Shown here piece after piece: positions 15,018 to 53,919 of a stretch of DNA of 64,000 bases; position 1 is the stretch's first letter, and each line of letters starts with the position of its first letter. Origin of the DNA: Isoetes taiwanensis (lineage: Eukaryota; Streptophyta; Lycopodiopsida; Isoetales; Isoetaceae); NCBI GenBank assembly GCA_021234155.1, contig JAJEKV010000071.1, positions 5,020,483 through 5,084,482 on the forward strand. The letters run 5' to 3'. The notes under the pieces are model-generated. The model had not been told where the DNA came from, ran no database searches, and worked only from the letters and a program-made list of their open reading frames with translations. The position numbers were made by a program, and so were the translations under genes.

Positions 15018-15334
15018 ATTTAAATTAAAATCCCCCTTAAACCCCCTTTGGTTTGGGTGCATATTCACGCGGGGGGTTACGTAGGACAGCGAGAGCCTCA
15101 AAAAATTTACAATACATGTACAAAATTAACACCATTAAGTACATTCTCTCAATCCTTATAGTATTTTGCAAACCTTGTACATGCATACCCCACAAGCGAG
15201 GATCGCTATGTACGGTCCAGATCTTGGAATAAAGGGCAAATATGCCCATCCGACAGCTCTTGTTGCCCGAAGTAACCCCCCGCGTGAATATGCACCCAAA
15301 CCAAAGGGGGTTTAAGGGGGATTTTAATTTAAAT
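15018..15334. mobile_element. 317-bp inverted-repeat element with invertible interior (copy 1)
   Basis: The element has perfect 63-base terminal inverted repeats (15,018-15,080 and 15,272-15,334), starting ATTTAAATTAAAATCCCCCT and ending inward with CGCGGGGGGTTAC. The interior is 191 bases. In copy 2 (53,611-53,919) the arms are in the same places, but the interior is the reverse complement of this one. It has the size and form of a MITE. The only frames are short: minus 15,249-15,037 here, plus strand in copy 2, sharing SDPRLWGMHVQGLQNTIRIE. No target-site duplication could be fixed because the outermost bases are palindromic. Confidence 0.9.
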
Positions 15335-15407
15335 GTGTCAAATGCAATGGTTTGTATTAATATTGTTAGTTGTGTGTTAATGGTTTATGTTAACTAAAAA
15401 ACTTTTT

Positions 15408-15422
15408 GGCCCCTTCGGGGCC
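15408..15422. repeat. Small perfect hairpin
   Basis: GGCCCCTTCGGGGCC, six-base arms with a three-base loop, followed by TTAAGGATGG. It lies just outside the invertible element and is preserved at 53,993-54,007. Function unknown. Confidence 0.6.
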
Positions 15423-15766
15423 TTAAGGATGGTGTAGGGGTGTAGATATAGACATTACCTAATACTCTAATGATGGATGGTATATCATAGCCTCACAAAT
15501 CTAACAAACTAGAGGTGCTCATGTTATAATATTATACCAATAGCAATATTAATACATGAGGTAGCATGTAATAATAGAATTTATTAATAATGAACAAACA
15601 GTTAAATCCTCATTGTTTTTTCTTCAAGTTGCATCAAGCATTTAGCTTTGGGTTAGGCAACCATTTATAATGGTAGAAATGGCACAAGCTAGTCTCCTGT
15701 CTTTTAATACAAAATAAAAAGAGAATTATGAGACTAGGTAGGAACCGCAACAACTGCAGATTTTAC

Positions 15767-16750
15767 AAGAATCAGCCTGAACAATCCGTCAAACCACGTG
15801 TGCCATAGTCCTCCTGCATAGTTTTGCACAGAAACTTTTAAAAACCCAGACTTTGACACCGCTGAGTTGGGTTTCAGCTTTGGGCAAGGACTATCAGTAT
15901 GTGCTGCAATAACATGAAATCCTTTCCAATTTGGTATCTGTTTTATAAATGGCACAATACATGTTAACATTCTATCTCCAAAGAGAAAAGGAAAAAAAAG
16001 ATTTATTAACGTACACTAAAGACCACAAAGACTTAAAAACTAGTTGCATCATTGACAACAATAAAAAGAAGGGAAGGAAAGAAAGATTTATATCTACCGA
16101 AGAGATATGCAGCCTATGAGACCAAATATCTAGCATTATAACAACCGGATGAAAAAGTAGCTCGGCAACCAACCAGGAAGACTTTTCGACTAATAGTGAT
16201 ATCAGACATTGGGGAGCTTAATGCCAAATAAAGACACCTGTATTGGCAACTAGAAAGAACTTCTCCTACATAAGAGCCATGCTGTGTGAAGATCTTTACC
16301 ATGTATCTCCAGGTCTTACACATGAGACATTCTATTTCTGTGATGCCAAATTGTCGATCAATCAAGCGATTGGCTAAATTCATTGCCACCTATATTGACC
16401 AGTGCTAAGTTGCAGTTTGAAACTGATCAACCCTCTTTCCAGGTTCGATATGGCACTGTTAATTTGACCAGCAGGTTGCTTACGGCAAACTGCTTCCGTA
16501 GCCCATCCATGGACTGCCTTTTATCTTACTCTGAGGGAATGAATGTATCCCAGCATTGTTTTAAGTAATTGTGTGTAACGTACATGCTTTTCATACTGTC
16601 GCATTATTAATAACAAATCTCAATCTATCTAAACATTATAAACTATGGGGATGCAAATCCTCATACCAGTGGCATGGAAGGGAGTCCAAGACTCGTTCAA
16701 GAATTTGAGAAGATCTGACACCACACTGACTTGCTCCAGAGTCTTGTCAA
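15767..16750 (-). pseudogene. Aspartyl aminopeptidase (M18), two exons only (copy 1)
   Basis: Peptidase family M18 enzymes are zinc metallopeptidases that remove N-terminal acidic residues. Exon A (about 16,750-16,667) encodes VVSDLLKFLNESWTPFHAT, matching the N-terminus of the plant plastid-type enzyme, and ends in a phase-1 donor G/GTATGA. Exon B (15,937-15,767), after acceptor AAACAG, encodes GFHVIAAHTDSPCPKLKP and GGLWHTWFD, containing the zinc-ligand HTD motif. The exons that should lie between (AEAKR... to the YFFTRN region) are not found in the 730 bases available, and the rest of the roughly 500-residue enzyme is absent. After WFD the sequence departs from the family. It is therefore a gene fragment or relic, not a working gene. 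Confidence 0.8.
15972..16389 (-). other. Intervening sequence between aminopeptidase exons
   Basis: It contains a minus-strand open stretch at 16,389-16,114 (NLANRLIDRQFGITEIECL, then CQYR before a possible donor at CAG/GTGTCT) that is not part of the M18 family and is almost identical in copy 2. It may be an exon of another gene inserted here, or chance. The rest is AT-rich, intron-like sequence. Confidence 0.3.
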
Positions 16751-16784
16751 CTGCAAGATTATAGCCATAGCAATCACGATCCAA

Positions 16785-17440
16785 TACAATGATGTTGTAA
16801 AATATTACAACAATCTTCTTCGAGCCGAAGTTAAGAACCTGCAGGCCCAGCTTCCAGGATCAACGCTCATCTACATGAATACATTTGATATCTAATACGG
16901 CCTAATCAGACCGCATTTAATTATGGTATGCTCATTTCTCCATCACTGATTTCAATTCGTCTTCTCAAAAAGATCACTCTGTTGATTCATTTCCTCAAAA
17001 AGATAACTCTGTCACAATAATTCGCGATTGTTTATTTCCACCGACCGATTCTTGCCCATAATGAATGCAAGACCAATTATTTCCCCTGTTTTTTTAAGCA
17101 TACAAATTAGGTCAAAAGCATTGCATTAGCTTAGGCAGAAAAAGTGCAATTATTCCGCAAAATCTAAGGTAAGATCTATCCCAAATGTGTTTTCAATACG
17201 TAACAAAAAGCCCGCAAGCAAGCATAGGAGGAAATTACAACTACAATTATGCGGTCCAATGTGGAGAAAGCAAGCAAATAAACGGAATGCAAGTTATTTC
17301 TACTACCCGCTTAGATCCGTCTAAAACATTTGAACTGGATGGAGTACATTATACAGATGCAGCCTAACCGGATCATCACAAGATGTATTCTTACAGCAAA
17401 TATTTCGAGCCCGCTTTTATCCCCTCAGACGATTTGCAAG
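16785..17440 (+). pseudogene. GDSL esterase/lipase, 3' exons (copy 1)
   Basis: GDSL esterases/lipases are secreted serine hydrolases acting on cutin-type, acyl or sugar esters. The exon from 16,785 to 16,925 encodes YNDVVKYYNNLLRAEVKNLQ and LPGSTLIYMNTFDI, the helix and strand before block V. The last exon (about 17,190-17,440) encodes GGNYNYNYAVQCGESKQ and DGVHYTDAA, the block V motif carrying the catalytic Asp and His (DxxH). Here the splice acceptor, the ACCG motif and the frame after DAA are damaged, whereas copy 2 reads through all three. Blocks I-III, with the GDSL serine, are absent. The first exon starts within about 35 bases of the opposite-strand aminopeptidase exon, so the two fragments are joined head to head. 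Confidence 0.8.
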
Positions 17441-18290
17441 CTTCGATCCGCCTAACTCCCCCTATCCGCCATTCTCGTAACCCTAAAACCCCTAAAATGG
17501 TCACCCCTAAATTGGATTTCATCTTTCTTTAACCAAAATTAGATACAAGGGTAAAACCACCGCCCGGATTGTTGAAGCCAACCCAAATCAACGAACTAAA
17601 AAGGGCGACTCTAGAAATACTATTTAGTATGCCTCCACTAATACAACGCAGTAAATCATAGGAAAACCATGTGAAAACCGTGATAAAACCACAAAAAACC
17701 CCCAAGTTATAATGCTAGATATTGAAATTCATGTCGGGTCTTTTTGGCGCTTTGCATTTGCTCAAAACCTTCATTATATATTCGACACTTGAATCTATTA
17801 TCTAGAGGGACTCTGCTCAATTTGTTTATTGTCCGGTATTCAAACCGCAAAATTTAAGACTACCGCTTTTGAAGTGATGCCTTTTTATTGAAAAATGCGT
17901 TCCTCTGTTATAACTATCTTATTTACAAACAAGATTGCGTATTAAACGGGAGCAAATCATCGAAATGAGAGCAAAAGAATATTCCTTAAAGATTCCCTTT
18001 TTTTTTACAAAAAAGGGGGTAAAACGAGGTAAAAAAAAAAAGATGCATGAAATTCTATTTTGACCCCCCCAAAAACGACTAGTTTTTTTTGTGCAACTAA
18101 AGAATTGACTTTTTAAAGACACTTTTTTTAGCAAATAGAATGTCCTTGAAGTATGTTTTAAGAGAGAAACTCTAATTTCAGAGGATAAAATATTTAACAA
18201 AAATTGAAGTAAAATTCTAACCGAAATCAGTAGTATTCTCAAAATTTGAAGATAAAATCTTCATATTCACATGCAAAATTTACGCTTGTT
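17441..18290. other. No gene; short telomere-like run and homopolymers
   Basis: AACCCTAAAACCCCTAAAA at 17,479-17,497 resembles two degenerate plant telomere units, too short for a telomere. At 17,560-17,610 copy 1 has about 52 bases that copy 2 lacks. Long A and T runs lie at 17,995-18,140. The minus-strand 107-codon frame at 17,919-18,242 is compositional. Confidence 0.5.
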
Positions 18291-18292
18291 TT

Positions 18293-18920
18293 CTAAGACT
18301 CGCTTATGCACAAAAGTGTGAGGAGTGATGAAGGAGGGATCCAGACGCCATCATATTCATTTATGCCTTCCTCATCACCTTCACTTTTTTTCATCGCCAC
18401 CGAGGAAGTGCTTGAGTTGTCTTCCTCGCCACTATCAACGTGATGGTGAAGCATTGCCACCACCACTCCCTTCCTCATCCCTCTTCCTCGTAATTACAAG
18501 CCTTTTAAGTAAATTGATAGTCCTCTGGCATAGACGATTGTTAGATTTCAATTTAAAATTATAACACAATATAGTCACGTCATTAAGGTTCAGCTCATCC
18601 CTACAACCCACTTTCTTGGACTTTCTCCCTTTTCCTTGGCTTCTCATTTCTAACTCATATCTACCTTCAAAAGCATTTTCTCGAACGTGCTACAAGCCAA
18701 TGAATCTTGAGTTTAGTGACTAAGCCTACAACAATGGAGGCCCGGGAGGTCTTGAAGGATAAGCTTTGAACCTTCTGTCAAAGAACCTTTGAGACATCTT
18801 TATTGTCCCAAGGTTGACAAACTCTGTTTCAGACTGCGATGGCTTTGTTCCGCTTTTGCAAACGCGTGTAGAAATGTGAGTGTGATGTACATTTAAGCAC
18901 CGCAGGTTACGAACCATCGC
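18293..18920 (-). pseudogene. Acidic/basic coding-like region, unrecognised (copy 1)
   Basis: The same minus-strand frames appear in both copies. An upstream part has LEMRSQGKGRKSKKVGCRDE. A downstream part has LKSNNRLCQRTINLLKR and an acidic Ser-rich tail (GSGGGNASPSR, then DSGEEDNSSTSS in the adjoining frame). In copy 2 the tail is continuous with EEEDEEGSGGGNASPS and ends KVTKEKVKVMRKA. A basic block followed by a disordered acidic tail would suit a nuclear protein, but I recognise no domain. The region downstream of the tail is AT-rich. Confidence 0.4.
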
Positions 18921-19263
18921 GTTTGAAAATTTTCATAAATTGCGTGTTCGCTCTTGCGGTCGCTAGCCCGCTTCATTGATGCGGTCGCTTGACTATCTTC
19001 AAAAGACTTTCTTTGGTGCCCTCTTGCTTCCTTCTTGCCTCGCCACATAAAAGATTAAAACAACACTGTTAAGAGTTGAAAAGGGATGAAAACCGTATTC
19101 TTAATAAGAATTGAAGATTTGTGCGTTAAATGCAAGCAAAAAGGAGGAAAATGTTTTAGAAAATAGACGACAAACATACTTTTTCATGTTATTTATTAAC
19201 TAAAAGTGGTTTTCCTAAGCTAAAAAAACAACAAAAAGGGCACTATTTTCCAAAATTAAGATT

Positions 19264-19602
19264 TGTATTCCTAATACACTTTGCCTTGAGAAAAGGGCAA
19301 AGTGTATTCCGTATCTACCCTTTGATCCGAAGATTAAAAAAGTGTATTCCGTATCACACTTTGTTTTGATCAAGGCAAAGTGTATTCCGAATACACTTTT
19401 GCCTTTCAGTGAGAAAGGCAAAGTGTATTGAATACACTTTGCCTTCGTGACAAAAAGAGCAAAGTGTACACTTTGCCCTTAAAGTGAGGGCAATGTGTAT
19501 TCCTGGAATACACTTTGGTTTTTTGAGTGAGGGCAATGTGTATTCGGAATACACATTGCCTTTTGTCAAAGGGAAAAGTGTATTCCCGAATACACTTTTC
19601 CC
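19264..19602. repeat. Tandem cluster of ~30-bp palindromes (copy 1)
   Basis: Eight to nine successive near-perfect palindromes of the form GGCAAAGTGTATTCC / GGAATACACTTTGCC, separated by about 10-base AT-rich spacers, giving an average period near 40 bases. The outer letters vary in a matched way on both arms: AAAGTG/CACTTT, AATGTG/CACATT, AAAAGTG/CACTTTT. The paired change suggests that symmetry is maintained. Copy 1 units are more degraded than those of copy 2. Confidence 0.9.
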
Positions 19603-19619
19603 ACAAAATTAAACCAACA

Positions 19620-21020
19620 CGGGACAAAAAGATTACTATGTAATTTTATATGCTTACCCCGTCCATAGTTTTGGGGTGATGTAAAGTGGAATATAGCAAA
19701 TCAATATAGATTGAAGGCCGGGTCTGGCGACTAAATCCAAAAGCGGAATACAAACAATCGAGGCACTCAAATTTTTTCTCTAGCTACTATTCCCGAAGAG
19801 ACCTGTAGACACCAAAGAAAGATGAAACAAAGGACAAAGGAGCAAATTGAAAAGAACAATAAGGACCAACCTCGGGACAAGCAAACAACATACCGAGGGC
19901 TTTGATTTAGACCTCTGACTTATTTTTTGCTAAATTATTTATTATTGGCTACAAAATACTGCCATATTTGATGTACTGAAAGAAAGTAATAAAAAAAATT
20001 ATTCTTATTTGTACCTTTTTTGGATGTCTTCGAATTCCTAGTGAAATTTCTGGTGTATTAATGTCTGGAATTTTGCCATTTTCAAGTGCTCTTTTCTACA
20101 CATGCAAGATCATCACTTCAAAAGAACCTAAAATGCACGATAAAATATTCTGTTCCACTTGAAATCCCCAACTTCTTTTGAAAATGATCAATTTTTAAAT
20201 CTTGGTGTTTTTTTTAAGGGAATCTTTGAAACGGGAGTGATGCAACACTCCCGTTTAGTTTGCAATCGTGTTTACATCATAATTATCTTATTTACATCAT
20301 TAGACTTTTCAGATACGTGGGACATTTATATAATTGAATATTCTTTTACACCACATTTGATCTTCTTTGCAATAGTAAATGTGACAATAGTCTACTCTTA
20401 CATTAATTGGTCAAGATGGTTTTCCTACTAGATAAGACCAAGAATAATCTTGTGCATTTGCTCATGGAACATAGGGTCTTCATAAACCATGGGAGGAGTT
20501 TAGTCTAATTGCTATAGAGGAGGAATTGCATTGTGCAAGTATAAAGAGGTGGATCAAAAACTGAACCCAACTTACAAAAGATCGAATAAACCCAAATAAG
20601 AAATACAATGCAGATTTAAAATAGATGAAAATAAACAACTTTTTACCTAGAGAAGGAGTATTTTTTATTCTGAATTGAAATTTTGGGGAGTTGTGAAAGA
20701 GAAATGTTCGTGTTTTAAAACATTCATATATCTTCAACCACAAAGTCCTTGGAACATTTACACACTTTAAGTTGCATGAGGAGTATCCTAGGGAGATATA
20801 AATCATGTAAGTAGGAACTAGAATTTGAATGCATACTAACATTTATATGTACATCGTAGATTCCTCTACATTGTTGTCTATAGCTCACCATCCTACTTTA
20901 CACTCCAAATTCTGCTCTTTGTTCTGTAATTGCCATTAAAAAGCTTCTTTAATCATTTAAGACTGTAATAGGCAAAATAACGTCATCCTACTCTAATATT
21001 TTATCTCTTTGCTATTGGTA
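19620..21020. other. No gene recognised
   Basis: AT-rich sequence. A minus-strand 120-codon frame at 20,480-20,842 is Phe/Leu/Ile-rich without a motif, and copy 2 keeps only its first part. A 90-codon plus frame at 20,159-20,431 is not kept. A small inverted motif GGGAGTGATGCAACACTCCC lies at 20,233-20,252. Confidence 0.5.
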
Positions 21021-21133
21021 GTATTTGATCTATTCACTGACAGACAGGCATGCAATGCATGCATGCATGCATGCATTGCACAGCTGCAGTAAGTGTGATA
21101 GAGAAAGTGCATTATTTTGTGAAGAAAAAAAAA

Positions 21134-21296
<163 letters not shown>

Positions 21297-21879
21297 GTGC
21301 AAAGCAAAGCAAAAGCAGAAGCAAAAGTGCAGGATAGAGAGATAGATATTATTTCTAGAAGAAGCAAGTTAGATGCTCGTAGATCATTTGAGGTTGGTGT
21401 AGGTAAATGATGTTTTTTTTATGACGCATCCTTAGAAATTATTTTTAATTAATGCTAAGTGTGAAAGTCCTTGAGCATATAGGACATATCACCAGCTATT
21501 CTACCACAATAGAACACGTTTCATATGAAGCTAACCAATGGAGAATCGTTTTCACATTCAGGAGATATGGGAAAGTTTGGTCTCTTGAGTTTAATGTAAA
21601 TATTATTAAGATGTAGCTGTGTGGTTGCCATCTATCTTTCAATGTGTGGAGTGGATGTGTGATATTCCACTGCCTTTTGTAATCCTTCCTTTTGGGCTCC
21701 TATAATATAAAGTAATCCCCCAATTAAAAAAAGGGGGGGAAGATCTAACATAAGAAACCTTGCCACTCATCTACCTTGCTCTCCCCTTGCACTGACCCCA
21801 TTAGTGCGTAAGATAGTCAATTTATTTATGTCTTCAAGCTGGCCCTTGCTTATTGCACGACCACCCTCCTTGCTTGAGA

Positions 21880-22440
21880 CCTTCCTCATAATATTTATAT
21901 AGGTTAAAATAACATAAGATGAGAGCAGCCAAACACAAGTGCTTAAGACTTTCCCCATAATATAGATTAATATTGATAACCTTCCCAATATAGATAAGAG
22001 GGACCAAAACCCCGTGCTCAAGAGTTTCCCCATAATATTTATACGGAGATAAGAAAGATTTCTCTCTGATATATTTATTGGTCCAAGATATTTATATACG
22101 GAGATAAGACAAGGAAGATTTTCCTCTGATATATTTATTGCGAGCGTCTTATTTAACAACCACGGTCATGTTTGAACCAGCATGAAATATAAAAAACTTC
22201 GTGTATTTTTTCTCTCAATGTGGCTTTAACATGACACTCACTAAAAAATTCGTTAAGTCCACAGAAACCTCGTGTATTTTTTTTTTGGTTCAAACATGAC
22301 CGTAGTTGTTAAATAAGACAATCGTATTTATTGGTGCAAGACTTTCCCCATAATATTTATACGAAGAGGAGACAAGACAAGGAAGATTTCTCTCCGATAT
22401 ATTTATTTGTGGGGAAATATAAATTACGTAAGATGCAAAA
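21880..22440. repeat. Tandem ~70-85-bp repeat array (copy 1)
   Basis: Repeated phrase CTTTCCCCATAATATTTATA, then GGAGATAAGACAAGGAAGAT, then CTCTGATATATTTATTG. Units start near 21,950, 22,025, 22,085 and 22,345. The MITE at 22,141-22,324 interrupts the array at TATTTATTG. In copy 2 one unit keeps 12 more bases (CTTTCCCCACAA near 60,634) that copy 1 has lost. Confidence 0.75.
22141..22324. mobile_element. MULE-type MITE, 184 bp, with 9-bp target-site duplication (copy 1)
   Basis: Terminal inverted repeats of 38 bases with three mismatches (left start CGAGCGTCTTATTTAACAAC, right start on the reverse strand CGATTGTCTTATTTAACAAC) flank a 108-base non-coding interior. The sequence TATTTATTG lies directly on both sides (22,132-22,140 and 22,325-22,333). 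A 9-base duplication is the hallmark of Mutator-like transposases. The element carries no transposase and must have been mobilised in trans. It inserted into the tandem array before the large duplication. Confidence 0.88.
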
Positions 22441-22464
22441 GGGCCAATTTTTTCTATAAGCTTC

Positions 22465-22722
22465 TTGGAAAAAACTATTGGGCTTCATTTTGCCTTCCCA
22501 TCCAATGAGGTTACAACATATGGCAAATATTGTTTCTTTGAAAGTCGAGCAAGAACAATTGCAGATTTTTACCTTCCTTCCATTGATCTTACCCTGCATT
22601 TAGTGGCAGAATGCAGCCCAATGGATATTTTTCCTTATGCGAATATTTTTTGTTATGCCAAAGGCCTGCTGGCCTGTGAATTTTCTGGGTGGGATAAGAT
22701 GAAGCTGACCTCCATCGGATAA
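22465..22722 (+). CDS. Open frame, unrecognised (copy 1)
   Basis: An 85-codon frame starting MEKTIGLHFAFPSNEVTTYG. In copy 2 the same start opens a 149-codon frame with the same first 70 residues. The minus strand is also open over part of it. The near-identity over the first 200 bases reflects the recent duplication rather than selection. Product unknown, possibly not coding. Confidence 0.25.
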   Translation: MEKTIGLHFAFPSNEVTTYGKYCFFESRARTIADFYLPSIDLTLHLVAECSPMDIFPYANIFCYAKGLLACEFSGWDKMKLTSIG

Positions 22723-22724
22723 CG

Positions 22725-23550
22725 ATTTCCTCAAGGATCCGCTTCTTTAATGTAAGCCGTTACCACTGAGGTGCGGCGTAACATTGGCCATCACCTCTGG
22801 CGAACATTGGTGTGTTCCCCTGAGGGCAAAAGCCAGGAGGAAAACAGCCCAGCGGGCCTCAAGGATCCCTTTTAATGGTTTGCCGGCACTTGTAACACAC
22901 ACTCGCGACATTGGCCATCTTTTTCGCCGTAAAAAAAAAAAACACTACTTATCTTAGAACAAATGTTGATTTTTTGTTTTATATCTTAGAACAAATGGGG
23001 ATTTTTTGTTTTATAATCTTTCATGTCTTTGTCAAATTGACTTACTGATCATGCATGTTTTGCCAACCTGACTATAGCTAAGAAAAGAATTATTATGGAG
23101 CAATCTCATATGTTTATATTAATGAGCTTTGACATTACAGTGCATGCTTGATGGGGCATTTTGCCCACAATGGATTATTTATAATTTGGCGCATAAGGTA
23201 CAAAGTCAACAACGATATCATCTAATTTGTTTCTAGATAACATCATGTCCACCATCTTGTGTCTTCTTCATTCTTGAAAACTTGAAACAATGATCATTTT
23301 GATCATCATCTCGAAGTCAATCAAAAAGATTCCAATAAAATATACATGTAACACTTGCAAACTTGTTTGCAAGGCTTACAACAACTAGATCCCAAACTGC
23401 AAGACTTACAACTAGATCCCAACATGGAAACCATGTAGGCTTCTTAGAAAATCCAAGTTGCTAGTAGCAAAAAGGCATGTTAAAGTTTTGGAAGTATTCA
23501 ATGCAAATAAGTATTTGATAAGAAGGGTTTTTAACCAAAAAGAAAGCTTT
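22725..23550. repeat. Non-coding with a 37-bp tandem duplication
   Basis: TATCTTAGAACAAATG followed by GATTTTTTGTTTTA occurs twice in tandem at about 22,940-23,012. At 22,735-22,925 a G/C-richer stretch differs strongly between the copies. The remainder is AT-rich with the phrase ACAACTAGATCCCAA repeated near 23,380 and 23,410. No gene recognised. Confidence 0.5.
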
Positions 23551-23552
23551 TA

Positions 23553-24344
23553 CTATGAGGGTGAGCATAGTGGAGAAGATGGATGAGCAAAGGGGTGTGA
23601 TACTGGTTCCATAGTGTTTGGTAAATATGCCTGGGGATGCATAAACAGATATGCTTCAGTTGCTCTGAAGACCTGATGAGTGACTAGCCTCACTCTGGAC
23701 AGAACTTTTTTTTGAGCAGGCTCTGATTTGAAAGGTTCATATTCTAGACTAACTCTTACATCTGTGCTGTATTCGTCTGCACCTTCTTTCAGCTCACTTG
23801 TAACCTTGAAATGGTCATATTCTAAAGATGCAACTGTCATGATCCTCCCTCTCTTCATCTACCCCTTTCAATCCTTTCCCTAACACTTGGAACAACTTCT
23901 GGCATGGCTGTAAATGAGAACCAGACATGGATTATATGTGGTAAAAAACACTTCAACAGAACTAATAAGAAGTGTAAAATGAGATTTTTCATCACAAGAA
24001 CATTTCATTCAGTCTATAGTCAAACAAAATATTTGGCCCTGTTTAGTGAAACCAATTTCTTAAGCCCTAATTAAAAAAAACAAATTGAAGGAATCCCTGA
24101 AAACAGAGCATAGAAAAGGCCGGATCTAAGAACATAAAGAAAGCCCAGAGGAAAGAAAATACCGGGACCAAAAATGACGACTCTGATGCTACCGACTTCC
24201 CCATTGCCTTTCTCGAATTCTGATGCGCCGGATATAATCGGGAAGCATGCGAGGCAAAAAGGTTGTGCATATCTTAAGGGCGGCCCAGAGATGATCTGGG
24301 CCGACATCGACCTGGATACTGCCTATGTGCACCGTTTCCACCAT
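23553..24344 (-). pseudogene. Bet v I / PR-10-like gene, frame-disrupted (copy 1)
   Basis: Same two-exon gene as at 62,070-62,861. Exon 1 is 24,344-24,163 and exon 2 is 23,907-23,553, with the same donor (CCCG/GTATTT) and acceptor (TTTACAG). Recognisable parts include the N-terminal SIQVDVGPDHLWAA and the C-terminal half SLEYDHFKVTSELKEG with FRATEAYLFMHPQAY. Exon 1 has a one-base net frame change (a base missing after ...GCCCTTAAG, two extra nearby), and exon 2 is four bases shorter than in copy 2. The differences could be consensus errors rather than real decay. If real, this copy encodes no full protein. Confidence 0.75.
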
Positions 24345-24430
24345 AGCCAAAAATGTGTGGAGCTCCAATTCTTCCGCTCAAACAAATATGAGCTATGGCC
24401 ACCAAAAAGGCTTCTAGAAGCCGGCGTCTT

Positions 24431-24505
24431 TACGTGACGTGGCAACTTTTTTTGTTTACATGGTCGGCACACGCTATTCAGCTGCAAAAATATACGTGAC
24501 GTGTC
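24431..24505. promoter_or_regulatory. Two ABRE/G-box-like boxes upstream of the Bet v I gene (copy 1)
   Basis: TACGTGACGTGGCA (24,431-24,444) and TACGTGACGTGTCA (24,493-24,506) share the core ACGTGACGTG and match ACGTG-core elements bound by bZIP factors in abscisic-acid responses. They lie about 90 and 150 bases upstream of the start codon. A TATA-like TATATT follows between them on the gene strand. Both are unchanged in copy 2. Confidence 0.55.
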
Positions 24506-24589
24506 AATTACACCTCACCATATACACTAACGAAATAATCGCCTTCTCCATATGCAGCGGTTTCTGATGGATGTTAAAATTCCATCGTA

Positions 24590-24830: not shown

Positions 24831-24859
24831 TGAAAACGAGCGAAATGCTTGCTCAGCAT

Positions 24860-26160: not shown

Positions 26161-26165
26161 AGGTT

Positions 26166-43136: not shown

Positions 43137-43137
<1 letters not shown>

Positions 43138-43185
<48 letters not shown>

Positions 43186-45715
43186 TGTCTGATGCTCTCT
43201 TGGGCCTCGAGAGACCATGGAGCACATGAGCGATAAAAAGGCGGTGAGTATCAACAGCTCTAATATAAGATCCTAAAGTCATTGGTGGCATTTGTAATAA
43301 AGAGAAAATCGGTAGCTTGAATGCCAAAACTATTTCTGATGTGAGCGTATTCCGGGCAACATGTAATTACATGATCTTCGTCTTCAATCTGTCTCGTTCC
43401 ACATACTTTACATAAGCGCTCTTCTACCTGGATCTTAGCCCATCTCCCGGTCTCAATTGCCAGCCTATGGGATCCTATCCTGTATCTGGCAAGCAGGCAT
43501 CTTTGAGACTTGGGTATGTTTGCTATCGAGATAGATTTGACTCTCACTGTTATCCTTTGGATTGACATTTTTTTGATGCTTTGTATCATTGGCTTTCTGG
43601 GTTTGCCCACATATCCCGGTGCCGATCGGCTCCGAAAGGTGAGTTGAGAGCGGGCCGAAACCATGGCGAACCCGGAAAAGTCAGCAAACCCGAACCGGGA
43701 TCGCCAGGCGAACCCGTTATGTTGGCGTGTAAGGTGGTGCGCTACCGCCGGGTTAAGCAGAAGCGAACGGAACCGAGGTGGCGTCTGCCCGTGCGGCCCG
43801 TGAGGTCGGATCGAGGCGGGCATTCAGCGAGGCCCCGCCCGTTAAAAGCGAACAAAGCGGCCCATTGTGCCCCAAATATTTCCATCAAATGTTAGGCAAA
43901 TTCATGCATAAATTCATACAGCGCCACTGTGCCCCTTCTCAAAAATCATTACCGCATTGTTGATCCGGATTCCATTGCCCTATTTTTGATCGACTCGTGC
44001 CCCAATTGCATTGCTTAAATTCGACAAACCCTTTAGAACAATCACATCGTATCGAGATAAATCCCTCGAATTTGTACCATACGCTGCTAATCGAAGTAGA
44101 TTGGATAAATTTTTGCGTCGGTACCAATTCTTCGGATCGATTGATCCGTTTTTAAACCAATCGGCCAAACGATCTTTGGAGTAGATCGGAAAAGGTAGTT
44201 CAAATCTGGAGCTATGGCTAAAATCATTAATGGTGAGATCTAAAAGGGTTTTAAGATTGAAAAGCCACATTACGTGTCGGGTCGTTTTGCGAGAATAACG
44301 GTGAGGCTTTTTGATGATGCTTAAAATGCTCTGCAAACACAAATTTTCTCTCAATCGAAGGATTTGTAAATTCGAAATCCATGTCGGGGAAAAATTTCTA
44401 CGAGCATTTGGCCCCTTAGGCTCGAAAAAATGCTTCAATTTTTTCGAAAATCATGTTTCAACCCCATCGTTTTAAAATTTTGATCTTAAGCCCTGCCCTG
44501 GCGATCCGAGACCTGCCATCCCACTTTTGGGTTAAACTACGCCCGAACCGGTGAAACCGTCGTTAGTAGCGCGCCACCCTGCCCACGCTGATCCGACCTG
44601 CCCGGCGTTCACCGCGCCTCGGCTTAACCACGGTTCGGGTTGGCTTGAACCGGTGGAGTAAGCGCCACCTCGGCGTACTGAGCCACCTCTCGTACGCTGG
44701 TGAATCGATGGGTAAGCGCCACCTCGGCGCACAGGCGAATCAGGTGGGTAAGAAAAGCCACCTCAGCGCTGGGCGAATCATTAGGGTTTCGCTAGAGGCG
44801 GGCTCCAGCTTGGCGGTTGACCCAATTTAGGGAGCCAATAAGGGGTAGAGCCCACATATGGCTTATTGCTTGCTTCTCGGCGTATGGTTCGAGGTTTCCT
44901 CTTTCTCGGGTGGCCATGGCGGTTATCCCCATCTAGCGACCCAAGCTATTAGCTTGTTTTCCCGTCCCCGAGTTCTCAAAGCATGGGTGAGATAACGGGT
45001 TGTAGCTTGAGCATTCACTCTATTAAAAAGTTTATTGACTGGTATAAACCTTCTAATTCGATTGGTATCGACCCTACGCCGCCCAAGCATAATCGAGTAG
45101 GGGATTAGAGATCTAATGCGAGTTCCTCTTTTTATGAAAGACTTTTAAATCTTTCAATCTATTTCCATAATTTGGCGAGATCTACGGACCCCAGTTGGAC
45201 TGCCGTCTGACACCATTTGTCTGTACTAGAGTTTTGAAAGAAGCTTCTTCAAATTCGATCTGTGAGTAATGCCTTATTGCATTTAGCTAGCATGTTATAT
45301 AATGCGGCTTTTCCTTTGAGACCCTCCTATTTATGCAGATTTTCCAATTTGTAATTGGATGCGGATCAATCCCAAATATTTATAAGATTCAAGCTGTTTC
45401 TAGTAGCTCTCCCTTGTAGGTGAAATCTGGCCTTTCTCGTGAGCCAAAGACCATAATTTTAGACTTAGATAAATTAATTGTCATCTTCTTTGCTGCACAA
45501 AAGTCTTCCAAGTGGTTGAGATGTTCTTGAAGTCTTGCTAGCAATTAGAACTACATCATCGGCATAGGAGGGAGCTGGAAGAATATAGCTGCCAAGTTTT
45601 GTCCCTATTAGTGATCTCTGTCGTAACCAATCATCTAGTTCGTCAATATAAATGCCGAATAGAGTGGGGGATAAAGGGCACCCCTGTCTTACCCCTATTG
45701 TGCTCTTCAAAACTC
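43138..45715 (-). mobile_element. LINE, 5'-truncated (copy 2)
   Basis: Equivalent of 4598-7130. The RT frame at 45,710-45,474 is almost unchanged. The C-terminal domain is better preserved than in copy 1: the frame at 43,823-43,260 has RYRIGSHRLAIETGRW, then LCKVCGTRQIEDEDHVITCC, a CxxC-x9-H-x3-C zinc motif, and it stops close to the (TTA)n tail at 43,138-43,185. Confidence 0.85.
43590..44840. other. GC-rich insert within the LINE (copy 2)
   Basis: Equivalent of 5120-6240. A minus-strand frame of 152 codons at 44,438-43,980 contains FNLKTLLDLTINDFSHSS and LVRLAAYGT-like sequence (LLRLAAYGTNSRDLSRYD). Parts of it are recognisable in copy 1 (RRDLSRLNVIVLKGLSNLSN), so it may once have been coding. 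Function unknown. The flanking GC-rich ends are the most divergent sequence between the copies. Confidence 0.4.
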
Positions 45716-46089
45716 AATTGCAATCTCGGGCAATATATGTGCATACCCAACATGTCAGGTGACATAATTCTTGAGCACTAAAGTTAGCAGTACTTATCTG
45801 AATGTTTTGTATGCATTTATAGCAAACTATTCTTGTCCACAGATAGAGAGTCATATAGGTCTGGTTATGGCAATACATACTAAAACTGATTAGTTCTATA
45901 AGAGTTGCACGTTTAAAATCCAGGGTATAATACTAAAAGCTTTAGCATATAATCTAGATGGCAATACAAAGAATGTTAGACAGCCAAATTCTACCTAGAA
46001 TTAGATGTCTAATTCTAGCATGATTCCATGGCCAGGACCATAGGCTATGCTATATAAGGATGTGAAGAGAATTTTCTTTGAAAATATAC

Positions 46090-46250
46090 CTTTTTGCCTG
46101 AATCCCTCCATTCATAGGTTGTAATCCTGGTTTTACATTCACCCATGAAGTCATTGCTCAGAATTATGAAGAAAGTGGACTCTGCAATGGAAGCACTCAT
46201 CAGGCAAGAATGAAAGCTGGTCTTTCCCTCATGGTGAGTTGTGCAAAGCG
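46090..46250 (-). CDS. Coding-like exon, unrecognised (copy 2)
   Basis: Equivalent of 7503-7665, identical over most of its length and changed only at the upstream edge. Confidence 0.3.
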
Positions 46251-47179
46251 GTGGTGGAGGACGAGAAATTTATCTATGCATTATGAAGCCCTACACAATA
46301 TCCGCCCGGGATACTATCCGCTAAAGCACAAATTGTCTATTCAGACTTCTTGAAGGGGGCAATATTTCAAATTTAAAATAAAAAAAATGTGGTGGATATG
46401 ACAGGATGATCTCGAAGATCTAAATGGAAGCCTACACTTATAAGAAGCAAAAATATTGGATCATATTTTTCCCTTGCCAAATGGATAGCAGTAATAGAAT
46501 GCTTTACCAGAATTTTTTGCCGATGTAGCGTTGACCATGCATCTATTGAAAGACTTGAAAGCATATACATCTCAACCACAAACGAATCTGCAACATAATG
46601 CTAAACCATAATGAATCTATGAATGTCAATGCAAAAGAAAGTATCAATAGATCATGTCTGTAATAAAGGTTTAAAAATTGCCTAGTGAGTAAAGCTATAA
46701 GAATATATCAAAGCCTAGATTCATATTATCAAAACAAGGTGCAAAGCACTGTAGATTGACCCCAAAATGCTATTATGAATAAAGCTTTATAAATGTATCT
46801 TCATTATTTAAATTATTTAATTATTTTGAAAGTAGTATAGGAACATGGATGAATCATTTTGTTGCATATGTCTTTGTTTTGCAAAGGCGAAGAGGTAAGT
46901 GGCCAATATATCGAAGATGTTGTTTTTAAATTACGATCCAGGTGTTGACAATTCATGTGTATTTTTTTTTTTGTTAAAGGGTGATCGTAACTTTTTTTCT
47001 TATGTTTAGATGTAGATTTTGAACATTATTTATTAGCATGTGTTTGTGTTGAATGGTTAAGTCCTTTGAGGTGTAGGGTTGAGTTAGTGTTGAATAACAT
47101 GAGTAGCATTATGGGATTTGAATTTTTAAAATCACGTAAAAGTAAATCATTTATATAAAAGTGTCTAGTTTTGCTTCAA

Positions 47180-47720
47180 AAGCAAAGATTTCTACAATTA
47201 TTAAAGCAGGGAAAGCTCATAGGCAGTGTTGATTGTCTAGTTTTTCGTACTTTCGATGATTACGTTTGCACAATTGATTTTGAATATCCCTATTGGATTT
47301 TGTTGAGATACTCGTTCCGCGGAATTTTTAGTGGCGGCGTCATCATTTCATTATACAATTCTCCATCGTCCATTCCATATGCTTTGTCAAAGGAGTTCAT
47401 TTAGGAAGAGTGCTTTGTATGCTTTGCACGTATTTGTAGATGGAACCGGCAAGTGTTAGTCTTGGCTTTGGATTTGCAGTTTCACATCGTCTTGTGTGTT
47501 CTTCATACGTTTGTTTGTGCAATGTGTACAAGCGTATCGTATGCTATCGAAATTGTTAGTTTGTGCTTCAAATTTGCCTTTGATCTGCGGGCCATATGTC
47601 GATTACATCTTGAAATTACTTGCATATATTTGTGATTGGTACAATTGTTTGCTTACCAGATTCGTCCTTCTTTGTTTTCGACATGACTTGGATACACAAT
47701 GTCTTTCATCGTCGAATTGT
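47180..47720 (-). pseudogene. Coding-like remnant, unrecognised (copy 2)
   Basis: Equivalent of 8595-9150, with the central part scrambled by differences at CG/CHG sites. MKDIVYPSHVENKEGR is open at 47,710-47,655. Confidence 0.3.
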
Positions 47721-50119
47721 TAATAATGTCGTTAGAAGGGCATATGTGAGATTTAAAGCAGTTTGCACCGTTTGAATTTGTTGCTTCATTTAAAAAGAAT
47801 GGGATTGGAATGTAGAACTTAAAATTAGTCAATGTGTTAGTACATCTTGGTGCCGACAAATCAAGCAAGATCGTTGTGTATATGCATTGTGAGCATTAAT
47901 TGTACTTCTATAACATAATTCTAAGCGTGACAATTCTTGGAGCGGTATGTACAATATATTTGGCGAAACTCCATTAGAGATTCCATCTCAACGTTATACA
48001 ATGTATAGTAGAATAAGGTGCTAATTGTAGACTCTAGACATTTGGATAATGAAAAAAAATTGAAATATGACAACTCAAATGTTGATGTAAGCGTGCTCAA
48101 ACCACCCAAGAAAGGTCGATCACGAGGGGTTCACTCCACAACATTATTTATTTAAGCTCCCTTAGGTATGGTTTCAAGGTTTTAATATTAAAATTCCACT
48201 TCCATAGCTAACTAATTTATTGAGACAAGTAATGCGAGAGTCTCATAATTACGTGCTTCTGACTTTAAAATCTATAGGGTCTTCACGGACCGCAAATGAA
48301 AAGTAACCAACCCTTGTCCACTGATCCCCGGACTAGGCCTCATCTCGGGAACAAGCCTGTATAATCATCCTAGATCACAGTTGATTTATTAGCTTCAAAT
48401 TACGTAAATGTCTTAGTTAATACAACTAGTCATAGAAATTCTTACAACTTGTTATTACTCTGCCCAGACGTCATGCTCGAATTTCCTCTGTTGGCTAATT
48501 CTTTCTTAAGCCCAGGCGCCACCCAATTCCTTCTATGATTACCTAACTTTATAATTTTCTTTTAACATGCCAACAATGAGTTCAAAGCAACAAATTGACA
48601 AATCAAACATAAACAACAAATAAAGACCACAACCCAAAAAAGTTACAGAAAAGAAAACAGCAACACAGCAAGCAACGAAGATAGACATGTTTCGGCCTCT
48701 TTGGGCTCTGATTTTTGGCATGGATTCACCATCTACCACTGACCCACCACCAAATCGACATGATCAAGCCCAAATCGACCTGATTCCGCTGATTTTGAGG
48801 CATTTTTGGGGCGGTTGGATCGCTTGAGAAGCTCTTCAAACACTGCCGAATAGCCATGCCAGTCCTTAATTCCTTCAAAATAGGCCTTTAAACTCAATTT
48901 AGGCCCTCTCTAAGTAGTTTCAGCATGTTCTAACCATGCCCAATCCACGCCATGAGACATGTGCTCAGTTTTTTTTTTTCTTCTGATCAATCCCATCTTG
49001 GTTTTGTCGGATCCAATTCACATCCTCAGAACAAATCAATCCTTCTTCCGATGATCTTTCAAAAGCCCATCTTACAAATCCAATTACCCGGATACAAAGC
49101 CTCTCAATGACAACTCTTAACAAAAGCATGTACAATCATGGCAGCCTATGCAAACCTCAATTGAATCCTAAAAATTAGAATTCAAACCCCACCTGAAAAG
49201 GAAGAACGATTTGATGCCGTTTATTCAGCTCCTGCCTCAGATAGCCTCCTCCGCTCCTCTGCGACTCAAATTCCTTCTGGAGCTCCTCTCTTGCAACAAT
49301 TCCTCACGTACCACCAAAAGCCCTCTTCTATAATTTTTTCTTTTTTTATAGTTTGGCTTATGTGGATTTACTTATGTGGATATATGAACCCAAAGATAAA
49401 TTCTAAAAAAGGAATCTCTAGCCCAAAGGTTAAAAAAACCAATAGTTTTTCACAAAAAACCGAGTTTCCGATCGTAGGGAAAAATAATTTGGCGTCCAAA
49501 ACACGGAAAACCTTAAGCGTATATTCATGCAAAAAAAACCAAAAAGTTTTTTCACCATAGGAAATACAATCGTGTGTGGCGTCGGATTATCGGATATACC
49601 CGATATGCGAGAATATGCCAAAACCAACCCTCCCCTAACGAATTGCCCCTTAGCGGGGGCAATCAAAAAAAAAATTGGCAATGTTGCAATTGAATATCTT
49701 ACATTCTTTGTACTTGAGCGATTGCTCAACATATATATGAATAAAAGCATTCCATACGCATCCTTGCGATGGCGATTGACATCGAGAGATCTCTGAGAGA
49801 TCGAATATGTAACTTTTTGAACAACAGGATTTGACCTTAGCAATAAAAACCAACAAACCATAAAATTCCCATAAAATGCTGAGCTCTTCAGCAATCATGG
49901 CATGCATGCCAAGATGCAGCCAGAAAGGGAAACTCAACATGAGTATGCTAGATCGGATAAGGTATGCTCACAGGAAGCCCAAAAAGAAAGTGGAAATCAT
50001 ACGAAAAGATAATATTTTATTTTTGGAACGTCGGATATATTTCCCGGCATCTAAACACAAAAATCTTAGGAAATCGACTTAAAAAAAAAACAAAAACTTT
50101 TTCCACCAACCGGAAAATC

Positions 50120-50868
50120 CCAAATTAACAAGATTGATACTTCACGAATCCCATAATAAGATTATATATATTTTGAACTCTTATTGATTTTAATAATTTG
50201 TCTTAACTTAGATCAAAACTATGATGGTTATTAAAGTATAAAATTGCTTTCTAAACTAATTTTCACTTTAATCTGTTTACACTTAAATTTCCATCTAAGA
50301 AAAGCTCTATATAATTAAATGTTATTTTTCAAAATACTTAAAGAAAATTTTAGGCTAAAGTTAATTAAATGATTACACTTATGCTTTAACAAAAAAAAAA
50401 TGAAATGAAAAAACTTTATGATTGAATAATTTTCAATATATTTTCATCTATTTATAGTTATATTTAAAACGTTAACTTTATCATTTAATTAATTTCAAAC
50501 TAAATTTTTTCTTAAAGTGCTTTTTAAAAAGTGTTAAAAGCTTGTAAATTGTGAAATTCTCATAATAATTTTAAGTCATAAACTTATCAAACCATCATAT
50601 TTCATTTAGAAATTATCATGATTATTAAATATTAAATATGTTAAATCCTTTGAAAATTGAAATTTTATATTCTTGAAATGTCTAATTCTAAATAGATTCA
50701 AGTGAAAATTAGTTTTAAGCAATTCTATGCTTTGATAATCGTTACATTTTAATTTAAGGATAAACTTATATAATTAAAACTTATAAAAATATAATAATCA
50801 AGAAGAATTAAACAATACATATATTCTTATAATGTCATCCTTGAAGTGCTATCTATTAAATCTGAATA
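50120..50868. mobile_element. Fold-back element F1 (copy 2)
   Basis: Almost letter-identical to 11,545-12,290 apart from a handful of small indels. Confidence 0.7.
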
Positions 50869-50919
50869 AGTCCAAGTTTTAATTGAATATATCATTAATC
50901 TTTGAGGGACATCATTATC

Positions 50920-51120
50920 CTAAGGAGGGAGAATGTGGCGTTCCCGAGAAATATCACGCTATAAATACATTATATTTTTGGGCCACATCAACTAATATAA
51001 GTCTATTTGAGTAGCCTTATGCGCCATTGAGGGGTGGAAAAGGGACATGTTTGTCTCATAAACTTTTGGATGAACTCCATGCCATTTGAGTGCAAATTAG
51101 CGAGGAAGAGAAGGTCTCTA
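50920..51120 (+). mobile_element. LTR-type retroelement fossil, LTR boundary (copy 2)
   Basis: Equivalent of 12,343-12,548. Purine-rich run followed by the TGTG start at 50,934. Broken relic, no coding part. Confidence 0.4.
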
Positions 51121-51122
51121 TG

Positions 51123-51335
51123 CTTCACAATTTAGAAGATCATCAATTTGGAGGGGAGGCTTTCTTGCTACTTTTGATAAAGCTTTGGATGTGTCAAGGT
51201 TGAGGCCATTCGTCAATAGTAATCCAAGCCTCATTTTTCCCATACTCTCATGATAGCTGATACTTGCTTCAAGTTACGGCTGGGAAAAAACCACGGAGGT
51301 TCTATCGATCCAGCGAACAATCCACATTAAAAAAT
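51123..51335 (-). CDS. Coding-like frame, unrecognised (copy 2)
   Basis: Equivalent of 12,535-12,756, identical except for a small cluster of changes near 51,275-51,295 that shifts the N-terminal part. Confidence 0.25.
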
Positions 51336-51656
51336 TCAATGCTCTAATTTCAAAAAAAGATCAGCAGGGCCGAAAAATAAGCTGCAACACTCAATCTGGA
51401 GCTCCAAAAGCAGCTTACGATACTAATTTGGAAGAATTTAAGACAGAGGAGAGGTCTATGTTTGAAAATACCAATGGATGGGATTTAATACGGTGTATAA
51501 GGTCAATCCAGTCCGTTGAAACATGTCTTAAATGGAGAGCGAAAATAGGACGGAAGATGGGCGGCTAAGATGTGCCCCTGTGGAAAAGGAAGATTCAATC
51601 CGAGCCTTTCGTTGGGGTCCACTAGGATGAATTTGGGTTGACACGTAGAGAAGATG

Positions 51657-52383
51657 TTATTCAAATATAATAAATGTACTTCAAGGATGCCATGATAATA
51701 TTATATGTATTTTTAGCTCTTATTGATTTTAATAATTTCTTAAATATGATACTTACTAAAGTTTAAAGTTGCTTTCCAAACTAATTCTTGGTTCCATCTA
51801 TTTAGAATTAAATTTTCATCTAAGATAACCCTGTATAATTAAAATGATGTTTTTTTTTTTAATATTTAAAGAAAGTTTTAAATTGAAATTAATTAAATGA
51901 TTACGTTTATGTTTAATAAATAATGAATAGTTTATTATTGATTAATTGTCAATATATTTTATTTTATCAATAATAAATTATTCAATAGTTATTATTAAAC
52001 CAATAACTTTATATCATTTAATTAATTTCAACCTAAAACTTTCCTTACTATTTTTAAAAGTGTAGAAGTTTATAAGTTGTGAAATTATAATAATAGTTTT
52101 AAGTCAATCGCTTATCAAACCATCAGATTTCATTTAATTATCATGATTGCTAAATCTTGAATCTGTTAAATCACTAAAAATTGAAATTTTTATATTCTTG
52201 AAATGTCTAATTCTAAATAGATCCAAATAAAAATTAGTTTGGAAATCAAGTTTATTCTTTGATAACCATTATAGTTTTAATTTAAAGATAAACTTATAAA
52301 AATTATAACAATCAAGAAGAATCAATCAATACATATATTTTTGTAATGGCATTCTTGAAATGTTATCTATTAAATCTGAATAA
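51657..52383. mobile_element. Fold-back element F2 (copy 2)
   Basis: Equivalent of 13,074-13,786. It retains CATCTATTTAGAATTA in the left arm, which pairs with the right arm and is missing from copy 1, so this copy is the more complete one. Confidence 0.75.
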
Positions 52384-52399
52384 GTCCAAATTTTGTTGA

Positions 52400-53610
52400 A
52401 TATGTCATGAAGACTATAGTCAAAGTTGAAGCTTTCCCATCTGCTCCGTCCAATTTGAGGAACTAGATTTTGATCTGGAGGTGTGGAACTTGGTTACTTT
52501 TCAGTCAACATGAATTCATTCATATGTATGTCTTTAGATTCTTCCTATAGCAGGACACAAGAACACAATTTGCTATTTGATCTTCCTCAAGCTTTTCTTG
52601 CTTAATGTCTTCCAAATTCAAAATGGGTTTGAGAGGAGCAGGGGTTAATACAGCAGTTGCTTCTAGGTAGTTGGTGTAGAATGATGATCTGACCAAGGAG
52701 GCTCTTAAAAAGACATTGTTTTGCCTCTAGATCCTAACTGCGACAAACCAAATCATGTTCTCGACACCCGGAGGATGGCTTTCATCGCTATGGCAAAGGA
52801 TCTAAGAAAATGAGGAAAATTTTCTCCTATCCATATTCAATTCTAAATGGAATTCTACTATGCAACTTGATGGGTCTTTCATAGACTGTATAGACTTCCA
52901 TTTAACAAGAGTGAAGCTCTTGTGAACCTCTCCTGGGAGTTTTCGATTCTTCCTTTTGCATCTGAGAGTAGTTAGAATAGCATCAATGCAGTAGTTTGTT
53001 GTGTATCATCGAAATTTGTTGAGCAAGAGATGTGGTTGTTTACTACTCAGTCATTTGGAGTTGCTGCAAGCTTGCAAGACAAGACAGAAACAATGCAGGT
53101 ATGTTCATATTTTCAAACTGACATATGATCTCTTCCATCTAAAACAAGGATATTATATTTAATATGCTTTTCTAGATCTGGTGTGCTTGTAGAAGATGTG
53201 TCTTTGCGAGGATTTAAATACTTTGAAAAGCGGGAGGCATTGTAAAATGGAATGCATGTAGATTGGATTGATTGTTCCAAAGATAGTACATTATATTAGT
53301 GGATATAGTATCACGGATATCTAATATCTAATATTTTTGTTGTGGGATAATAATGATCCTTTATAGCTGCAGCCTTTACTATTATGCTTTGTATTTGAAT
53401 ATGTCTAGAAGGAAATCTTGCAAATCTAATAATTGCATGCAGAATTTTTTAACGCATGTTAGCATGTTGCACACATATTTATATCGTGGAGCATATTTAT
53501 TCAATATGATCTGTTTCTTTTATCATTTCTAGCTTTAAATCATGCCCATTTGATAGTTCTTGATCATTTTTTGGTGCTCAAGAGCCACTCCTTACCATAG
53601 ATATGTTCGT
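52400..53610. other. No assigned gene; equivalent of 13,800-15,017
   Basis: It contains the same possible exon with a CAG/GTATGTTC donor (about 52,990-53,098). Identical to copy 1 over roughly 52,810-53,160. Confidence 0.3.
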
Positions 53611-53919
53611 ATTTAAATTAAAATCCCCCTTAAACCCCCTTTGGTTTGGGTGCATATTCACGCCGGGGTTACTTGGACAACAAAGGCTGTCGGATGGGCA
53701 TATTTGCCCTTTATTCAAGATCGGACCGTACATAGCGATCCTCGCTTGTGGGGTATGCATGTACAAGGTTTGCAAAATACTATAAGGATTGAGAATGTAC
53801 TTAATGGTGTTAATTTTGTACATGTATTGTAAATTTTTGAGGCTCTCATTTGTCCCTCGTAACCCCAGCGTGAATATGCACCCAAACCAAAGGGGTTTAA
53901 GGGGGATTTTAATTTAAAT
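53611..53919. mobile_element. Inverted-repeat element, interior in opposite orientation (copy 2)
   Basis: Arms at 53,611-53,672 and 53,859-53,919. The interior starts ...AGGCTGTCGGATGGGCATAT and ends ...GAGGCTCTCATTTGTCC, the reverse complement of the interior at 15,081-15,271. Flanking sequence outside the arms is colinear with copy 1 on both sides, so only the interior (or the whole symmetric element) has been inverted. Confidence 0.92.

What the first reader, a model, noticed from the sequence alone, without database searches (positions are those of the whole stretch)
15018..53919. Small inverted-repeat element whose interior is flipped between the two copies of a 38-kb duplication
At 15,018-15,334 and 53,611-53,919 the same element sits at the same place, with colinear flanks, but its ~190-base interior is the reverse complement in one copy. 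The arms in copy 1 are perfectly matched over 63 bases. Inversion by recombination between arms, or a recombinase acting on them, would give exactly this. If it happens in living tissue, it is a natural DNA flip switch in a plant genome. The interior holds a short frame and would change reading direction on inversion. Alternative explanations are excision with reinsertion in reverse, or an assembler choosing orientation arbitrarily across a hairpin.
Basis: partly seen in the sequence, partly recalled or inferred. Interest (0 to 1): 0.8.

Follow-up and report, generated by a model that had tools for sequence, protein, structure and literature searches.

The report
Hairpin repeat with in-place flipped loop
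A small hairpin-shaped repeat, one of many in this large genome, has its middle turned round in one copy of a duplicated region; this fits passive recombination between its mirror-image arms, already known from chloroplasts and transposons, and nothing here shows a working genetic switch.

Summary
At 15018-15334 (c1) and 53611-53919 (c2) the same repeat sits at the same site with colinear flanks, and its ~190-base interior is reverse-complemented. It is the only such inversion found along 25 kb of duplicated DNA.

The repeat belongs to a dispersed hairpin family; 40 copies were scored in the window's own 1.66-Gb assembly. In 23 of 27 near-full copies both arms run further out. c1 and c2 share the same cut left arm and long right arm, and their interiors are nearest relatives among 40 copies. 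So the interior turned inside fixed arms.

Contig C233, which meets unique DNA upstream of c1 at 99.0% over 1 kb, carries the c2 orientation. c1 is probably the turned copy, perhaps recently, unless the contigs mislead. Across the family the interior stands either way relative to the long arm (19 against 7 of 40).

Best reading: passive arm-to-arm recombination or template switching, a known mechanism (IS inversions, plastid small inversions; internal inversions are also described in plant PIF/Harbinger elements). No recombinase or regulation was found in a limited search. No reads were available, so an assembly artefact remains possible.

The parts
15018..15080 (+). c1 left arm, 63 bases identical to the right arm; its outer edge is also the left edge of a composite insertion
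   Evidence: empty-site comparison
15081..15271 (+). c1 interior (loop), flipped relative to c2 and C233
15272..15334 (-). c1 right arm, the part that mirrors the left arm
15335..15745 (+). c1 outward continuation of the long right arm, shared with other family copies (end approximate)
53611..53672 (+). c2 left arm, cut at the same place as in c1
53673..53858 (-). c2 interior, in the orientation also seen in C233
53859..53919 (-). c2 right arm, the part that mirrors the left arm
53920..54330 (+). c2 outward continuation of the long right arm (end approximate)
15018..17719 (.). composite insertion absent from four older relatives of this locus (C111, C1056, C1028, C46), whose sequence resumes at 17720 in C111, C1028 and C46 and at 17743 in C1056 (c2: 56243 and 56266)
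1..25504 (+). first unit of the duplication seen in the window; homology also runs upstream of the window
38564..63990 (+). second unit of the duplication, about 38.6 kb from the first

Best explanation
The feature is one copy of a dispersed hairpin repeat with no known coding role: two mirror-image arms round a ~150-190-base loop. Its loop was inverted in place in the c1 copy. The arms pair with each other, as homologous duplexes or as a snap-back hairpin during replication or repair. A crossover, or a double template switch, then turns the loop round and leaves the flanks and outer arms as they were. The same exchange makes the arms alike, which fits the perfect arms of c1. It is a passive side effect of arm homology, rare but probably recurrent in the family, not a regulated switch. 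Shown: same insertion, fixed outer arms, reversed interior, and the other orientation on a second contig that looks like the same locus. Inferred: the pairing mechanism, its rate, and that the flip exists in living tissue.
For: Colinear flanks with a reversed interior. Other copies show that the arm normally continues outward; c1, c2 and C233 keep it only on the right and share the left junction. Among 40 copies the nearest interior to c1 is c2 (distance 0.025, next 0.061) and to c2 is c1 (next 0.081); L034, the C233 copy, is nearest to c1 (0.082) and then c2 (0.094). C233 carries the c2-like interior and is colinear with unique DNA upstream of c1: C233:38201-39200 matches C1080:5003883-5004881 at 99.0% (5 mismatches, 4 gaps) with no match in the window, at about the same distance from the element (30.5 and 30.6 kb). 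Over 7.3 kb of C233:22001-30000 it agrees with the sequence upstream of c1 at 362 sites and with the second unit at 116; 195 sites are its own and 45 differ in all three. Family polarity: of 40 copies, outer sequence type A or B lies only on the c2-like side in 19, only on the c1-like side in 7, on both sides in 3; type C in 2 (one each way); none in 9 (recounted). Arms within a copy differ by 0.020 on average against a nearest-other mean of 0.034 in 18 copies; within-copy is smaller in 11, tied in 2 (L026 and L031, one insertion, were not compared with each other). Known precedent: PMC3004938 (abstract, Introduction and Discussion read) and PMC8604942 (abstract and Introduction read).
Against: No reads, so an assembly error at c1 cannot be excluded. 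In the low-divergence bins small indels are about as many as substitutions (42 substitutions, 40 indels of 1-2 bases, 7 longer, in 30 of 102 bins), the mark of a poorly corrected consensus. C233 may not be the c1 allele: its left flank is only 92% like c1, less than c2 (96%) or contig C945 (96 and 98% in two pieces); in 9.6 kb round the element it has 738 sites of its own, agrees with c1 at 247 and with c2 at 140, which on three sequences measures branch lengths, not kinship; at about 100 kb no colinearity with C1080 was found in the 9 kb looked at. It could also have switched units inside the repeat. The 19:7 family count overstates flips if the ancestor had long arms on both sides, as L009, L016 and L027 do. 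One other same-insertion pair (L026/L031) is not flipped. In 5 of 18 copies an arm is closer to another copy than the two arms are to each other. A bird survey found no link of microinversion hotspots with stem-loops (PMC3123225, abstract).
Confidence: 0.72

Rival explanations
1. Assembly or library artefact: reads at c1 carry the c2 orientation, and a consensus step, a chimeric read or template switching at the hairpin during library making turned the loop round in the contig.
For: The consensus is indel-rich, the region is duplicated, and C233 disagrees with C1080 at what looks like the same locus. A 63-base arm defeats assembly by short words (general knowledge).
Against: The window holds no N and contigs exceed 30 Mb, which suggests long reads that span 317 bases easily. 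The interior is intact and colinear to both arm ends. Both polarities occur at other loci in the family, though these come from the same assembly.
Confidence: 0.15
2. Excision and reverse reinsertion at the same site, or two independent insertions after the duplication.
For: A palindromic ATTTAAAT edge would let an element enter either way. The interior shows no substitution in its middle while the right flank does.
Against: The family element is longer than 317 bases, and its outer right arm and cut left arm stand alike in c1, c2 and C233. c1 and c2 interiors are nearest relatives among 40. Four older relatives of the locus lack the insertion while c1, c2 and C233 share its left and right edges, which fits one insertion before these split.
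Confidence: 0.04
3. Ectopic gene conversion: another family copy with the opposite polarity overwrote the c1 interior.
For: The family is dispersed and holds both polarities.
Against: The c1 interior is closer to c2 than to any other of the 40 copies; a donor outside the 40 is not excluded, as 2370 first-look candidates were counted.
Confidence: 0.05
4. A dedicated site-specific recombinase flips the loop, perhaps with regulatory effect.
For: Both orientations occur at what seems one locus and across the family.
Against: No recombinase family in the 8 of 29 listed window frames tested; the rest of the genome was not searched. Arms vary from about 48 to 576 bases, with no fixed recognition-site layout seen.
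Confidence: 0.04

Closest known systems
TIR-TIR recombination inversions of insertion sequences (ISWpi1 in Wolbachia; PMC3004938, abstract, Introduction and Discussion read)
   Same: A segment between terminal inverted repeats is turned round in place, and the asymmetry between the repeats is lost after the event, as in the perfect c1 arms. Reported at 2 of 22 loci with 23-bp repeats. Its Introduction also cites a eukaryotic Tc1/mariner element inverted by recombination between its repeats after insertion in a baculovirus.
   Different: ISWpi1 is a bacterial element with a transposase gene. Here it is a hairpin repeat without a known gene in a 1.66-Gb genome, with arms of about 48 to 576 bases.
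Internal inversion in a PIF/Harbinger-like element of Medicago truncatula (PMC2213677, passages read)
   Same: A plant element with terminal inverted repeats whose internal region is inverted between copies.
   Different: There the authors link it to 60-bp tandem repeats, and different element copies are compared, as far as the passages show; here the same insertion is compared.
Plastid small inversions in hairpin loops (PMC6824564, abstract and passages read; it cites Kelchner and Wendel 1996)
   Same: Stem kept, loop turned round, states changing several times in evolution.
   Different: Loops there are 4-24 bp and in plastids. Here the loop is ~150-190 bases and lies in a repeat of an assembly of nuclear size.
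Template switching between inverted-repeat arms (yeast; PMC8604942, abstract and Introduction read)
   Same: Arm homogenisation together with spacer inversion.
   Different: Shown there for short inverted repeats in genes.
MITE and foldback elements with long terminal inverted repeats (recalled)
   Same: Short, high copy, mirror-image arms.
   Different: No target-site duplication could be shown, and one arm often ends early and at different places.

Membership tests
In-place inversion by arm recombination | Colinear flanks with a reversed interior between inverted repeats | tested here: met
In-place inversion by arm recombination | Same insertion in both copies, breakpoints inside the arms | tested here: met
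In-place inversion by arm recombination | Both orientations present in DNA of the organism | tested here: inconclusive
   two contigs differ; no reads held
MITE (TIR DNA transposon) | Dispersed short copies with terminal inverted repeats | tested here: met
MITE (TIR DNA transposon) | Target-site duplication at fixed ends | tested here: inconclusive
   one arm ends at variable places; the insertion here is composite and no clear duplication was seen by eye
MITE (TIR DNA transposon) | Autonomous partner with transposase | not tested
   not searched
Recombinase-driven invertible switch | Recombinase gene linked to the site | tested here: inconclusive
   8 of 29 listed window frames tested, no recombinase family; the rest of the window and genome was not searched
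Recombinase-driven invertible switch | Loop carries a promoter or frame whose direction matters | tested here: inconclusive
   longest frame begins alike in 8 of 12 copies but differs in length, another frame is longest in 4; promoters and coding not tested

The most novel reading that the evidence does not exclude
The loop of this hairpin family flips often enough in the living organism that one individual carries both orientations at a single locus, making the family a natural and countable reporter of intrachromosomal recombination between short inverted repeats in a large eukaryotic genome.
Probability: 0.2. Interest if true: 0.6.

Novelty: new member of a known kind. Interest (0 to 1): 0.35.

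Why it matters
If reads confirm both orientations, each copy of the family becomes a built-in reporter for recombination or template switching between inverted repeats of tens to hundreds of bases. That would give a rate per locus in a large genome, where I know of few such data (recalled, not searched systematically). It also warns that interior orientation of such repeats is not a safe phylogenetic or structural marker.

Tried and rejected
Elements elsewhere: an exact 25-base arm pattern had no match in viral contigs; no further copy in the window up to 3 mismatches of a 19-base arm pattern. No tRNA and no Rfam family at gathering score in the window. Pfam gave one weak RVT_1 and one weak Bet_v_1 match, both below cutoff, among 8 frames, so the organism was not identified. 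Further duplication units in the 8 kb looked at on each side, about 38.6 kb away in C1080: none. Colinearity of C233 with C1080 at about 100 kb: no match; this limits the haplotig reading to the first ~39 kb of C233. C945, a fourth version of the locus, shows only the left arm and about 20 inner bases before other sequence; its edge fits the unflipped state best (score 10 to C233, 8.5 to c1's right edge, 6.5 to c2, 5 to c1's left edge; 99th percentile of shuffles 9), which is weak.

Papers: searches are listings, of which 15 of 143, 15 of 22, 20 of 61, 10 of 10 and 2 of 2 papers were shown. Among them one plant case of an internal inversion in a transposon was found and its passages read (PMC2213677). 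I saw no report of a loop flip at one and the same insertion in a plant nuclear repeat in these listings, which is no proof of absence.

Dropped or limited: of the 40 places scored, 38 were fetched with flanks; the other two are c1 and c2. Arm comparison used the 18 of 40 copies with both arms long enough. The c1/c2 totals include the flipped element forced into direct alignment (bins 15000 and 15250). One search failed on a missing file and was rerun. The right-flank search of the genome did not complete.
Full report
OBSERVATION. The two places hold the same repeat with colinear flanks and a reversed interior. Element c1 (15018-15334) aligns to c2 (53611-53919) end to end only on the opposite strand, 94.0% over 318 columns; the reversed alignment scores 525 and the direct one 155. 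The c1 arms are identical over 63 bases and the c2 arms 96.8% over 62. Along 25 kb of duplicated DNA, a scan of 1270 slices found reversed matches only here, apart from one slice in a self-palindromic repeat. Another spaced inverted repeat present in both units is not flipped.

WHAT IT IS. The window lies in an unnamed assembly of 1.66 Gb in 1110 contigs, at C1080:5020483-5084482. A search with the 317 bases scored 40 places at 81-100% identity out of 2370 first-look candidates, so this is a dispersed repeat. I fetched 38 of these with flanks and added c1 and c2. In 23 of the 27 near-full copies laid side by side, both arms continue outward beyond the 317 bases; the exceptions are c1, c2, L034 and L021 (read by eye; 27 counted). 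In 18 loci examined at 10 kb (16 fetched plus the two window copies), arms run from about 48 to 576 bases. One arm is usually longer, and the outer sequence beyond it is shared among copies, while the other arm stops at different places. No clear target-site duplication was found. I therefore call it a MITE-like or foldback-like hairpin repeat and do not file it in a transposon superfamily.

THE FLIP IS IN PLACE. Both window copies keep the long arm on the right and are cut at the same place on the left. An element taken out and put back in reverse would have moved the long arm to the other side; it did not move. Each interior is the other's nearest relative among 40 (0.025; the next is 0.061 for c1 and 0.081 for c2). 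Older relatives of the locus at 84-85% (C111, C1056, C1028, C46) lack the insertion: their sequence runs from the left junction to the window's 17720 region. A fifth (C1105) diverges just before the junction and says nothing. So the insertion is best read as one event before c1, c2 and C233 split, with the turn coming later. The insertion is composite (15018-17719) and seems to hold a second element with perfect 18-base inverted ends at 16125 and 17723.

WHICH COPY TURNED. A third version of the locus sits on contig C233 (positions 7388-7694), with the interior as in c2. C233:38201-39200 matches C1080:5003883-5004881 at 99.0%, in DNA with no match in the window, and the distances to the element agree (30.5 and 30.6 kb). 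Over 7.3 kb of C233:22001-30000 it agrees with the sequence upstream of c1 at 362 sites and with the second unit at 116. C233 is thus best read as a second contig, perhaps the other haplotype, of the c1 locus. c1 is then the turned copy, and the turn is of allelic age. Against this: round the element C233 is noisy (738 sites of its own), and its agreement with c1 over c2 is 247 to 140 sites, which on three sequences measures branch lengths and not kinship; its left flank is 92% like c1, while c2 is 96% and another contig, C945, 96 and 98% in two pieces; at about 100 kb no colinearity was found. The interior of C945 could not be read beyond about 20 bases, which weakly favour the unflipped state.

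RECURRENCE. Scoring which side of the interior carries outer sequence type A or B gives 19 copies like c2, 7 like c1, 3 with both sides, 2 of type C (one each way) and 9 undetermined, of 40 (recounted). The 19 include c2 and L034, and L026 and L031, which are one insertion each. This suggests several flips in the family. It is weaker than the same-site evidence, because an ancestor with two long arms could be trimmed on either side. Of two same-insertion sets found among the 40, one is flipped (c1 against c2 and L034) and one is not (L026/L031).

MECHANISM. The c1 strand can fold into a 63-pair perfect stem (z = -16). Arms within a copy are more alike (mean 0.020) than the nearest arms of other copies (0.034): smaller in 11 of 18, tied in 2, larger in 5, as expected if arms exchange sequence, though arms alike at birth would also do. 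The flipped copy c1 has the perfect arms. Spacer inversion with arm homogenisation is the known outcome of template switching between inverted-repeat arms (PMC8604942, abstract and Introduction) and of TIR-TIR recombination (PMC3004938: 2 of 22 loci, 23-bp repeats, asymmetry of the repeats abolished; it cites a eukaryotic Tc1/mariner case). Loop flips at plastid hairpins are described in PMC6824564 (abstract and passages). An internal inversion between copies of a plant PIF/Harbinger-like element is described in PMC2213677 (passages). A bird survey found no link of microinversion hotspots with stem-loops (PMC3123225, abstract). I prefer the passive reading at 0.72.

ARTEFACT. The consensus is imperfect: in the 30 of 102 bins with at most 4 substitutions there are 42 substitutions, 40 indels of 1-2 bases and 7 longer. 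That is more indels than ordinary divergence gives (general knowledge) and suggests a noisy consensus in the duplicated DNA. A turned 317-base segment is not a typical error of long-read assembly, but without reads it stays possible (0.15).

SWITCH. Nothing found supports a regulated switch: no recombinase in the 8 of 29 listed frames tested and variable arms. The loop's longest frame begins alike in 8 of 12 copies and differs in length, which does not decide whether it is read.

VERDICT. A real in-place loop inversion in a common hairpin repeat, probably recent if C233 is the same locus: a new instance of a known mechanism. Its value lies in the family as a possible reporter of inverted-repeat recombination.

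Noticed in passing
window 1-25504 and 38564-63990: The duplication is a patchwork: 250-base bins range from no difference to 79 substitutions, with runs of up to 718 identical bases, and small indels about as common as substitutions in the close bins; this suggests poor consensus, gene conversion or both.
   Followed up: partly
window 16125-17723: Perfect 18-base inverted ends about 1.6 kb apart at the right edge of the composite insertion, perhaps a nested transposon.
   Followed up: no
window 11564-12321, 13094-13813, 50138-50898, 51677-52411: A ~0.75-kb repeat, 76-77% alike between its two places in each unit, with inner inverted stretches.
   Followed up: no
window 15402-15425 and the outer arms of many family copies: GGCCCC-TTCG-GGGCC or GGGCCC-TTCG-GGGCCC mini-hairpin beyond an A/T run, close to where many short arms end.
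   Followed up: partly
window 62070-62516 and 23553-23858: A conserved exon-like stretch (weak Bet v 1 match, below cutoff), longer open frame in the second unit and shifted by small indels in the first.
   Followed up: no
G000 contig C945:1555649-1568713: A close relative of the left flank (96 and 98%) split by about 12 kb of other sequence, with the element's left arm at its end.
   Followed up: partly
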